From: Eucalyptus grandis
Taxonomy: Eukaryota > Streptophyta > Magnoliopsida > Myrtales > Myrtaceae
Assembly: GCF_016545825.1 (NCBI RefSeq)
Contig: NC_052618.1
Location: 12,515,398-12,579,397 of the forward strand
Direction: 5' to 3'
Length of the DNA: 64,000 bases
Shown: piece by piece, positions 10,344-36,300 of the stretch
How the letters are laid out: each line of letters starts with the position of its first letter
Position numbering within the stretch: the first letter of the stretch is position 1
Notes under the pieces: generated by a model
What the model saw: only the letters and a program-made list of their open reading frames with translations
Databases searched by the model: none
Told to the model about the DNA's origin: nothing
Position numbers and translations under genes: made by a program

Positions 10344-10618
10344 CTTGATACCAAGGGGATTAGAGACACCTCGCAGGAACTCAAGATGAGCACCATCAAG
10401 TTGATGTGTACGTTCCCCGACCCGAAATATATGGGCAGAGCAGTTGTAGTAAAGTCCAGAAGTTGAGTCCTCCAGGTTAAGCTTGCTCAAAGGGCAAAAG
10501 CAAGCACTCATCTGAAGTCCAGAATTCAGTTGTAGTCATTATTTGGTGATCAACTGTGAGACCAGCTGCGGCCATGAAACCGAGGGCTTCGTCCACCCTT
10601 TGAGCCGGTTCAGGATAT
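10344..10618 (-). pseudogene. DAHP synthase (class II) pseudogene, exon 3
   Basis: DAHP synthase joins phosphoenolpyruvate and erythrose 4-phosphate in plastids, the first step of the shikimate pathway. Read on the minus strand after an AG acceptor at 10620-10619, the frame gives QRVDEALGFMAAAGLTV, then TTEFWTSDECLLLPFEQA, a signature stretch of plant class II enzymes (family form has H where this copy has D). After EQA small indels break the frame; GERTHQLDGAHLEFLRGVS and NPLGIK follow in another frame. A GT donor (10343-10342) follows the AAG of GIK, matching the usual exon end. Exons encoding the last third of the enzyme are not visible. Frameshifts and stops make it a pseudogene. Confidence 0.88.
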
Positions 10619-11126
10619 CTGGCAAAACACAAACCAACAAACTCAAATGTCAGCATTCACTGACCCCCTAAATTCTATTGTTATGTGAATCTATTCTCAC
10701 TTCAAAATTTTGACTAGGAATGTTCCAATTTTAAAGAAGAGGGAAGATTTTCATGTTCTCTTCGTTTTAGCTTTGAATATAAGCATCAAATAAGACCAAA
10801 AAACTAAGGGTCCTGTGACCTTGTCACACTGCTCAAATTTAAAAGATAGAAATCAACACTTTAAAGAGGCAAGAATATATGCACAATTTCCATAGAGTGA
10901 GGCCAAGATCACTCAGCTTCTCTTGAGATCTCTGCTCTGTTAGCTAGTCTCTGCTTCGTATAGGTATTTAGATCAGGTATGCATCACTTAAATTTTCAAT
11001 TCCACATATATGAAAGCACACCCACAAGGAAGATTGATAACAAAGCAAGTTTTCTTATGCATTTTTTCTAGTACCATTGAATTTTAGATGTTCAAATCTC
11101 ATCTGGAGTAAAAGAATCGGGATAAT

Positions 11127-14100
11127 TGTCACGCCCGATTCTCGTGCACGCGCACATCCCTTATTTTTGGTCGATTTACAATGCGATATCCCCAGGACTA
11201 CATATCGCCGACCCTTTCCTTTTTAATAGCACATGCGGAAGCAGTTATAAAAATCCCCAAACAATAAAGCAATGGGATATACAAGTAGGACTAGAAACCT
11301 GAACTTGAAAACCACACCCTTATGTACATATATACAACTCAGTCATACATGTACATATATCAGCCATGCTAAAAAGGTTGGTTTCTACTCAAACAGATTC
11401 TACAACAAAGGTCATCAAATAGGAGTGGAGTCTCAATCCTCATCAGGATCCTACTCTGGATCATCCTCGGGGTTCTCCTTCTGGTACTCCTCTTCGGGTT
11501 CTTTCTCCTTAAGTTCTTCATCAGGGTCCTGAAATGTTTTTCCCAAACCGGGATGAGACTACGTCTCAGCAAGTTCTACCCCCTAAGACCCGATTAGTAA
11601 ACTAATACACTTTAGGGCTGCCTATGCACAATATGAGTTAGAGGACTTATCTAGGCCTCAGATTCCACCTGCATATTAACACAGATCAAATAGGCACCAA
11701 AGCAATCACATCACAGATCAAAGATCGATCTAATTGACCTAGTTGATTACACGCCAACAAGACCACTCATGGTCACTTCCATTCAATCGATCAATTCACA
11801 ACATCAAATCACCCTCTGATCGAATCATCGATCAATTGACTTAGTCGATTACATGTCAGTCAGACCATTTCTAGGTCATTCACTCCATCCCATAAAACCT
11901 CCAATAATACACTTAGTCACAAAGCTCCCATTAATTTTCTCAGGCGTCGTTTTCGCCAAGGTGACATAAGTAATAGATGGTCTACGTGCGTTCTTAAGGC
12001 GCCGTTTTCGCACAGTGATATTCCTCATCACCGAACCACGCCCGTCATAGGTCACAAATCACTGACAGTCTATGTGCGTTCTTTAAGGCGCCGTTTTCGC
12101 ACAGTGATGTCCTTCATCACCGAACCACGCCTGTCACGATTCATAGGTAATCTACGTGCGTTCTTTAAGGCGCCGTTTTCGCACAGTGATGTACTTTATC
12201 ACCGAACCACGCCTATTTATACTTCGTACTTGATCAGTCTCAGCCAATAGAATTCTCAGTTAGCCCTCACCACTCTCTCCACTTACAGCTCAACAAGGCA
12301 TTACAATTGCTAACTAGCCATACTCGGCCATTTACCAATCAATAATTCAATTTCACTCAATTTCAATCAATTTATGATAAATCCCTAAAATATCACAATT
12401 TATATAATTTCACACAACGTAGAGCTCAAATAAATAAACGGACTGTGCCACGACAATCAGCACGAAATTCTGATCGTCGGTCACCTCAGCATTAATTTCC
12501 GAAAAATAATTAAATAATTAATTAATTTCGAAAATTAATTAATAAATATTAAAATTCAATTTAGCTCAAAATAAAGCCCGATTAAATAAACGGACTTCAC
12601 CACGGTCATCAGCATAATATTCCGGTCACTGGCCATCCCAGTTGAATTTTCGGAAAATAAATAATTAAATAATTAATTTCGAAAATTAATATTTAATTCC
12701 TAAAAATACCATTTAGGCCCGAATTGCCTAATTAACACCCGATAAGGGTCGGGAAAATCCCACGAAGCATCCAATAAATACTAAGACATGTTTACTAATT
12801 AAATGCACAATCAATTTAATTAACATGCATCAATGAGTCTTTAATTTAATTACTTTAATCTAATCTATCCACCTAATTGCAATTAATTAAATCTAATCAA
12901 CCTTTAAGTATAATTAGCAAACTAAGAAGGCATTAGTGAGCAAAACTCACTTGCACTAAACGAAGGCCGGGACACAGAGACGACGACGCAACTGCGGCCG
13001 AACTTGGGTCGGGCCAAGAACTTCGCAAGCCCGAAGAAACTTTGGACTTCAAGATTGGGCTGACTTCTTTAATCACTTGGGCTTGAAAATACTGAATTGA
13101 GGGCTGCTTGCTGGGCCAGAATTAAATTGAAAAATGGGCTCTCTCTCTTTGGGCTGAAATAAGCCAAATTGCTAGGCTTCAATTCTAATTGATGATGGGC
13201 TGAGTTTCCTTGGGCGATGGGCCAACCAAGAGGCAACAAAAGCTGCCGATGGGCCTCGGACTACAAGGCCAATGTTGCTGAAATCTACGGCAGCTGGACT
13301 CCACGAGCTGAGTTGGGCCGAATGTTGGACTGGGGAAGCTCGAGCGTGAAGATGGAAGAAACGGAAGCAGCTTGCGTCTCTGTGGTGTCTCGGACGTGTG
13401 TGGAGGGAGAGATCTCTCGGTGGAGCTGGCCACGTGGATGAAGAGGGAGCAACTTCAGCTTCAATTCGGTGGAGTAGCAAAATCAAGATGGAGCAGCTTC
13501 GGCGTCGTTGGCAGCTTGCGAGAAGACACGGAGCAGCAATCCGTTGGATGTGTGGCGAGCTGGGAATTTCGATGTTGCAGCTGGCGGAACACCGAAAGTG
13601 CAGTGGTCCAAGACTAGTGGAGGGCTTCAATCGAGTGTTGACCGAGTGGGGTTGAAGGCGCGCCAACCGGTGAAGTTGAAATCAAATTGCTGCCGACAAA
13701 GCCTAGTGGAGGATGCGGCTTTGATCTTCGGTGCAGCTGTTCTTCGGTCCAATCTTCAATGGACTCCTCTGGGCGTGCAAGGATGTGAAGATGGCCGTGT
13801 GGATGAAGGACAACACATCAATGAGTCAACAACTAAGCTTTGTTGGACTCTTTTGTGGACCGAATTTGGCAGAGAAATGGAGCTCCGTGGATGAAGATGG
13901 AGTCCTCGTTTGGGTTGTTTCGAAGGAGCTCGAGGAATTGAAAAATAAAATGGAGACATACGCAGGAGGGGATAGGGATGGCAAGCAATTGGAGGGCAGC
14001 TGGATTTCTAGCTCAAGTAGACTAGAATAGAGCTTAAAGTCCACATCTTTATCCACCCAATTTAATGCAATGTCCCCTAATTCTTTCCACAACTTAAATT

Positions 14101-35359: not shown

Positions 35360-35469
35360 TTGTGGCCACATAAAATAAATTTTCAGTTATTAATCTGAGA
35401 ATGTCGTTTTCAATATAAAATCATTTTCAAAATAAAAATAAGTTAATTAATGTAGCTCAAGTGGAAGAA
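34785..35469 (+). other. 3' untranslated part of copia element 1
   Basis: AT-rich, non-coding. A phrase of the type AAGAAATTGCATTGAG with TTTCATGT recurs about three times at 35010-35120, and a (TA)n run lies at 35329-35355. A purine tract AAGTGGAAGAA (35459-35469) precedes the 3' LTR and is the likely polypurine tract. Confidence 0.65.
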
Positions 35470-35973
35470 TGTTGAAAAATTCCTATAATATGGGCTCATA
35501 TTAATTAATTGATTTTATTTTTTAAATAATTAGGTTAATGGATATTTCAATTTATGTTAAATCTTTAAGTGATCTTATTCAATTATGTTTTGGCATCTAT
35601 TGATAACGAGCTTAGTTGAGTAATAAATTATAGATGATTGTGTTTAATTAAAGCCCGTAATGAAAGGGGCCCAATTGATACTCTATTAATTAGGGTTTGC
35701 TAGGTCCCCCTTTAGCGTATAAAAGAGTAGGTTATATCTATAAGTCATTCAATCTCATTAAAATCTGTTTTACTGAAATATGTCATAGAGAGGAAGATCT
35801 AACATTTTAATAAATCGCTAATTATAATCGAACTGATTTATTTTTCTTTGAGTGAATGAATGAGTCAAACAAGTACGTTTTAATTCCACTTTACATATCA
35901 ATTGGTGTTTTACAGTCATATATGGATTTTATTATTCTTGATTAATTAGTTATTTATGTGTATAATTTTTACA
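35470..35973 (+). repeat. 3' LTR of copia element 1
   Basis: TGTTGAAAAATTCC to TTTTTACA. It pairs with 24339-24798 but has extra sequence (about 35600-35650) and many substitutions. DAHP synthase exon 1 begins directly after it. Confidence 0.87.
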
Positions 35974-36300
35974 TCTCCTCTAGGCTCTGCGCCTCCCCGG
36001 CAAAGATGATGGGCGGGAACGATTCAGCATCAGCTTCAAGCGCATCCGGGTCCGGGTACTTGGGGAGCTAAAGGGCGTTCTTGGTCTTCTAGCTCTCCAG
36101 GGTCCATTTTACGGTGACTGAGGTGGCCAAGGATGAAAAAAGAGGAGGCAGGTCCGTCGTGTGGACGGCTGGGATGGGTCTCGCGGCAGGGTGGGGCAGG
36201 AGGGAGCGGTGGTGGCAGAAGGAGGGAGGGTGGAAGAGGGAATTGGAGGAGAGATAGGATGGGGAGTAGAGAGAAAGTGGGAAGTTTCGGGAGAGAGGAA
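35974..36300 (-). pseudogene. DAHP synthase pseudogene, exon 1a (N-terminal part)
   Basis: On the minus strand from about 36300 to 35974 the frame reads a serine- and proline-rich stretch (RSLLPHPAARPIPAVHTTDL), like a plastid transit region, then VKWTLES, stop, KTKNAL, stop, LPKYPDPDALEADAESFPP and IIFAGEAQSLEE. This is the family order (WxLxSWKSKKALQLPEYP ... FPPIVFAGEARSLEERLG), with two tryptophan or glutamine codons changed to stops. It joins exon 1b (RLG at 24338) across the copia element. I see no clear start codon in this frame, so the 5' limit is approximate. A different frame that stays open here (36109-36366) is a shadow. Confidence 0.85.

What the first reader, a model, noticed from the sequence alone, without database searches (positions are those of the whole stretch)
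10344..36300. One DAHP synthase gene scattered over 26 kb by nested insertions, with exon joins still readable
Five minus-strand fragments follow the order of plant class II DAHP synthase without overlap, interrupted exactly at transposon ends bearing 5-bp duplications (TCTCC at the copia element, AATAT/GATAT at LTR A). Splice sites of introns 1 and 2 are preserved although the exons contain stops. A shikimate-pathway enzyme is essential, so other copies must exist; this is probably a duplicate that died. An annotation pipeline would miss it or call four unrelated small proteins.
Basis: partly seen in the sequence, partly recalled or inferred. Interest (0 to 1): 0.75.

Follow-up and report, generated by a model that had tools for sequence, protein, structure and literature searches.

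The report
Dead enzyme gene split by transposons
A spare copy of a eucalyptus gene for an essential aromatic amino acid enzyme died long ago and was pulled apart over 26,000 bases by mobile elements that landed in it; it is a clear but ordinary genome fossil.

Summary
Five pieces of exons 1-3 of a plant class II DAHP synthase gene lie in order on the minus strand (36386 to 10281), parted by two introns and three large insertions with 5-bp target duplications: a copia element in exon 1 and TG...CA elements in exon 2 and intron 2. The genome is Eucalyptus grandis. So this is a DNA-level duplicate of the L009 line, not a retrocopy or mixture. It is dead: start codon deleted, in-frame stops, a frameshift, exons 4-5 missing, near-neutral changes. 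Corrections: homology runs slightly further than stated; the copia duplication is TCTCA/TCTCC; two more elements are nested in the inserts and a SINE-like insert sits in intron 2. By all changes the copia LTRs look as old as the gene duplication; transversions alone put the insertion at about 0.6 of that age. An ordinary unprocessed pseudogene, instructive as a fossil.

The parts
35974..36386 (-). 5' UTR and first part of exon 1 (transit peptide region to ...SLEE); start codon lost in a 34-nt gap; two in-frame stops
24339..35973 (+). copia LTR retrotransposon in exon 1; LTRs about 24339-24799 and 35470-35973; target duplication TCTCA/TCTCC
   Evidence: LTR alignment; boundaries; RVT_2 and SH3_retrovirus domains
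26515..30586 (.). TG...CA element nested in the copia element, duplication GAATC
24173..24338 (-). rest of exon 1, one stop; followed by preserved GT donor
22860..24172 (-). intron 1, 78% identical to L009 intron 1 over 1143 compared columns
22724..22859 (-). first part of exon 2, preserved AG acceptor before it
15855..22723 (.). TG...CA insertion in exon 2, duplication AATAT/GATAT
18505..21670 (.). related TG...CA element, inverted, nested in the exon 2 insertion, duplication TGAAC
15717..15854 (-). second part of exon 2, three stops and a 9-nt deletion; followed by preserved GT donor
15418..15660 (.). SINE-like insert in intron 2 with a poly-A-rich end; absent from the L009 intron (limits approximate)
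   Evidence: alignment; sequence; the SINE label rests on tRNA-like boxes recalled, while ARAGORN found no tRNA in the window
11127..14961 (.). TG...CA insertion in intron 2, perfect duplication ATAAT
10344..10618 (-). exon 3 to NPLGIK, 2-nt frameshift, preserved AG before and GT after
10281..10343 (-). first 63 bp of intron 3; homology to L009 stops here, exons 4-5 absent

Best explanation
An unprocessed duplicate of a class II DAHP synthase gene of the L009 line (L009 lies 4.3 Mb away on the same chromosome) was disabled, probably early, by loss of its 3' end, loss of its start and point changes, in an order that is not shown, and then decayed near neutrally. A copia element landed in exon 1 at roughly 0.6 of the age of the duplication; TG...CA elements of one family (probably solo LTRs) landed in exon 2 and intron 2, and others landed inside these inserts. 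The result is one gene stretched to 26 kb. Shown: parentage, order, insert ends, disabling changes, near-neutral pattern. Inferred: which lesion came first, the relative age of the copia insertion, and the solo-LTR nature of the TG...CA inserts.
For: Collinear hits; the five pieces fit L009 best of four paralogues and introns 1, 2 and the start of 3 align with it; window branch 35 nonsynonymous, 11 synonymous and 4 stop changes, against a neutral expectation of 2.8 nonsynonymous per synonymous; omega 0.42 to L009 against 0.04-0.05 among the four paralogues, which in a simple model fits a copy dead for about 0.77 of the time since duplication, 95% range 0.43 to over 1; target duplications; LTR transversions per site 0.61 of those in introns, range 0.39-0.88.
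Against: By all substitutions the copia LTRs (K 0.252) are as diverged as the introns (0.235), so an insertion as old as the duplication is not excluded. Identity to L009 is uneven (exon 1b 94.5%, intron 1 78%). The polarised counts leave 32 changes unassigned, 20 of them synonymous, so the window-branch ratio may be too high. In exon 1 and intron 1 the partial copy L013 is about as close as L009, so the true parent is their common ancestor. In blastn the best exon 1a piece of L010 is more identical, but over 52 bases only (84.6%).
Confidence: 0.94

Rival explanations
1. The fragments are unrelated captures from different DAHP synthase genes brought together by transposons.
For: Transposons can capture gene pieces (recalled); the genome holds two other partial copies, L013 and L014.
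Against: 5 of 5 fragments fit L009 best of four paralogues, introns are kept in register, and the exon breaks lie at element ends with target duplications.
Confidence: 0.01
2. It is still a working gene with very long introns: the inserts are spliced out.
For: Splice sites of introns 1 and 2 are kept; plants can splice long introns holding transposons (recalled).
Against: Two inserts lie inside exons; 7 of 280 compared codons read as stops, one of them at the exon 3 frameshift; the start codon and exons 4-5 are missing.
Confidence: 0.01
3. The duplicate was partial from birth (exons 1-3 only), so dead on arrival, rather than whole and later truncated.
For: Homology stops sharply 63 bp into intron 3, next to a 240-bp stretch similar to a place on C2; no exon 4-5 relative of this copy appeared in the Pfam scan of the genome, which scores only its best candidates, or by DNA in 84 kb around it, apart from one weak 34-base match (E 0.047) in the downstream part of the query.
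Against: The 3' end could have been lost later by deletion; nothing here dates the break, and the DNA search of the genome for exons 4-5 did not complete.
Confidence: 0.45

Closest known systems
Plant class II DAHP synthase (PF01474; phospho-2-dehydro-3-deoxyheptonate aldolase, chloroplastic)
   Same: Exons 1-3 align in order with the family; the L009 protein is up to 89% identical to the plant enzymes among the 120 best listed.
   Different: This copy lacks its start, exons 4-5 and an open frame.
Unprocessed (duplicated) pseudogene broken by nested transposons
   Same: Keeps introns, carries stops and a frameshift, changes near neutrally, split at target duplications.
   Different: Nothing in kind; unusual only in how readable the joins remain over 26 kb (judgement, no survey made).

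Membership tests
Class II DAHP synthase | Sequence match to PF01474 along the family in order | tested here: met
   four window stretches above the cut-off; collinear tblastn
Class II DAHP synthase | Complete open reading frame | tested here: not met
   stops, frameshift, no start, no exons 4-5
Unprocessed pseudogene | Introns kept in register with a parent gene | tested here: met
   introns 1, 2 and start of 3 align with L009
Unprocessed pseudogene | Disabling changes and near-neutral evolution | tested here: met
   32 changes could not be polarised
Unprocessed pseudogene | No functional transcript | not testable with these tools
   no expression data at hand
Ty1/copia retrotransposon (24339-35973) | LTR pair, 5-bp target duplication, RVT_2 polymerase | tested here: met
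   the duplication has one mismatch; of four copia-region frames scanned two gave a Pfam match
Solo LTR (15855-22723, 11127-14961 and the two nested copies) | TG...CA ends and 5-bp target duplication | tested here: met
   4 of 4 have TG...CA ends; 3 of 4 a perfect duplication, 1 with one mismatch
Solo LTR (15855-22723, 11127-14961 and the two nested copies) | A full-length relative with the same sequence at both ends | not tested
   genome searches unanswered

The most novel reading that the evidence does not exclude
The whole chromosome 7 branch of this enzyme family is being eroded: besides this copy and the exon-1-only copy L013, the open gene L009 has a block of about 12 kb, holding a pair of 96% identical 1.2-kb repeats, between its first 178 bp upstream of the ATG and a 541-bp stretch (76% identical) that in L013 lies only 336 bp further up. 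L009 may itself be silenced or on a new promoter. That the 541-bp stretch is the old upstream region and not a repeat was not tested.
Probability: 0.15. Interest if true: 0.3.

Novelty: new member of a known kind. Interest (0 to 1): 0.2.

Why it matters
It is a well-preserved fossil of how a duplicated gene of a core pathway dies and is dispersed: the surviving relative, the inserts and the lesions can all be read, and the duplication and one insertion can be put in a tentative order. It tells nothing new about the enzyme.

Tried and rejected
Rejected: mixture of paralogues; retrocopy (introns present); working gene with long introns. The match of 9045-9274 to the region upstream of L013 suggested a tandem neighbour; a genome search with 9000-10340 gave 63 matches, 55 of them on C7 and one of these the window itself (40 of 119 candidates scored), so it is a dispersed repeat and was dropped. 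The LTR divergence first seemed to make the copia insertion as old as the gene duplication; transversions alone give a younger age. On the 5' side homology fades at 36386-36434 and dispersed repeats begin at about 36457. That the 120 listed proteins hold none 90% or more identical to L009 was not used: entries are clustered at 90% and the names shown are those of the listed entries. Rfam at gathering thresholds and a tRNA scan of the window gave nothing. Paper searches: 12 of 12 papers listed; 5 of 5; 12 of 18; 12 of 52; 10 of 105; I saw only listings with starts of abstracts and opened no paper; no title or shown text described this locus.

Full report
Setting. The window is G000:C7:12515398-12579397 of a 616.5-Mb genome in 36 contigs. 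The paralogue on C9 encodes a protein 100% identical over its whole length to an Eucalyptus grandis entry whose contig is 44,060,374 bases long, the length of C9, so the genome is Eucalyptus grandis.

The gene pieces. A whole-genome scan with PF01474 gave 26 matches. They fall into four five-exon loci (L009 C7:16.80 Mb, L010 C9, L011 C8, L012 C6), two partial copies (L013 with exon 1 only, L014 with the end of exon 4 and exon 5), and the window. tblastn of the L010 protein against the window gives exon 1 in two parts, exon 2 in two parts and exon 3, in order, on the minus strand. L009 has an open frame of 511 codons with GT-AG introns. L010 is open too; L011 and L012 change frame in the transit peptide part of exon 1 in this assembly, so I call them five-exon loci and not proven intact genes.

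Parentage. Each piece was aligned separately with the four paralogues (for the first piece only its conserved part, 35975-36130): identities to L009 are 0.792, 0.945, 0.886, 0.894 and 0.909, against at most 0.674, 0.848, 0.758, 0.773 and 0.759 for any other; sites shared with one paralogue only are 57 for L009 and 11 for the other three together. In blastn one exon 1a piece of L010 is more identical, but over 52 bases only (84.6%). Introns 1, 2 and the first 63 bp of intron 3 align with L009. The copy was therefore made at the DNA level. L013, left out, is about as close in exon 1 and intron 1 (intron 1 distance 0.238, against 0.250 for L009), and is itself closer to L009 (0.131); the parent is thus the ancestor of L009 and L013.

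Lesions. The start codon lies in a 34-nt gap; exon 3 has a 2-nt deletion, exon 2 a 9-nt deletion and exon 1 a 9-nt deletion, besides small length differences of 3 and 6 nt in the transit part. Of 280 compared codons 7 are stops, one of them at the frameshift; 9 codons with gaps were left out. Exons 4 and 5 are missing: L009 DNA from intron 3 to beyond the end of the gene finds the intron 3 remnant and one weak 34-base match (E 0.047, from the part downstream of the stop) in 84 kb, and the Pfam scan, which scores its best candidates only, shows no further copy. L014 belongs with L011, 95% identical over 918 bp. A DNA search of the whole genome for exons 4-5 was tried six times and never answered.

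Selection and time. On the window branch I could assign 35 nonsynonymous, 11 synonymous and 4 stop changes; 32 changes stayed unassigned (20 synonymous, 10 nonsynonymous, 2 stop), and 9 fell to L009; the neutral expectation is 2.8 nonsynonymous per synonymous. Pairwise omega is 0.42 with L009 and 0.04-0.05 among the four paralogues, whose synonymous distances are large, 1.3-2.0. A simple two-phase model, with omega 0.05 assumed while functional, puts the dead part of the branch at 0.77 of its length, range 0.43 to above 1. Pooled intron divergence is 0.235 (0.212-0.258) and LTR divergence 0.252 (0.198-0.311), but LTR transversions per site are only 0.61 (0.39-0.88) of those in introns. Methylated cytosines decay by transition (recalled), so I take the transversion figure as the better guide, and the copia element as probably younger than the duplication; only 9 of 68 LTR transitions lie at CpG, so this rests on methylation outside CpG as well. 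No absolute age is given because no rate was tested here.

The inserts. Five insertions were delimited, with their 5-bp duplications: copia 24339-35973 (TCTCA/TCTCC), 15855-22723 (AATAT/GATAT), 11127-14961 (ATAAT), and nested 18505-21670 (TGAAC) and 26515-30586 (GAATC). The copia element carries RVT_2 and SH3_retrovirus matches; two other frames of it gave none. The four TG...CA elements share sequence (the one inside the copia element more weakly, 66-67%) and show no LTR pair of their own in the self-comparison; they are most likely solo LTRs, but the search for a full-length relative was unanswered. A SINE-like insert at about 15418-15660 is absent from L009.

Edges. On the left, homology stops at 10281 beside a 240-bp stretch similar to C2:26479626-26479862, and then dispersed repeats. 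On the right it fades at 36386-36434 and dispersed repeats begin at about 36457. How the duplicate came to lie 4.3 Mb from L009 is not shown.

Verdict. It is an ordinary unprocessed pseudogene, notable mainly for how well its history can be read.

Noticed in passing
L009 (C7:16797500-16806500) and C7:16804727-16817319: L009 has a block of about 12 kb starting 178 bp upstream of its ATG relative to L013; the block holds two 1.2-kb repeats 96% identical.
   Followed up: partly
L013 2024-3679 and L014 2751-3649: Two more partial DAHP synthase copies: exon 1 with part of intron 1 near L009, and the end of exon 4 with exon 5 close to L011.
   Followed up: partly
L011 and L012, exon 1: Reading frame changes in the transit peptide part, possibly assembly errors or real lesions.
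   Followed up: no
window 46540-53359: Pair of repeats of about 438 bp, 97.9% identical, around a stretch similar (67%) to the copia polymerase region at 33269-33913: probably a younger LTR element.
   Followed up: no
window 31146-32157: Inverted terminal repeats of 112 bp, 92% identical, inside the copia element: a small DNA-transposon-like insert.
   Followed up: no
window 4813-5943: Array of direct repeats with a period of about 82 bp.
   Followed up: no
window 37717-38220: Open frame with a plant mobile domain match (PF10536), beside dispersed repeat DNA.
   Followed up: no
window 9000-10340: Dispersed repeat DNA concentrated on C7: 55 of 63 matches, the window itself included; 40 of 119 candidates scored.
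   Followed up: no
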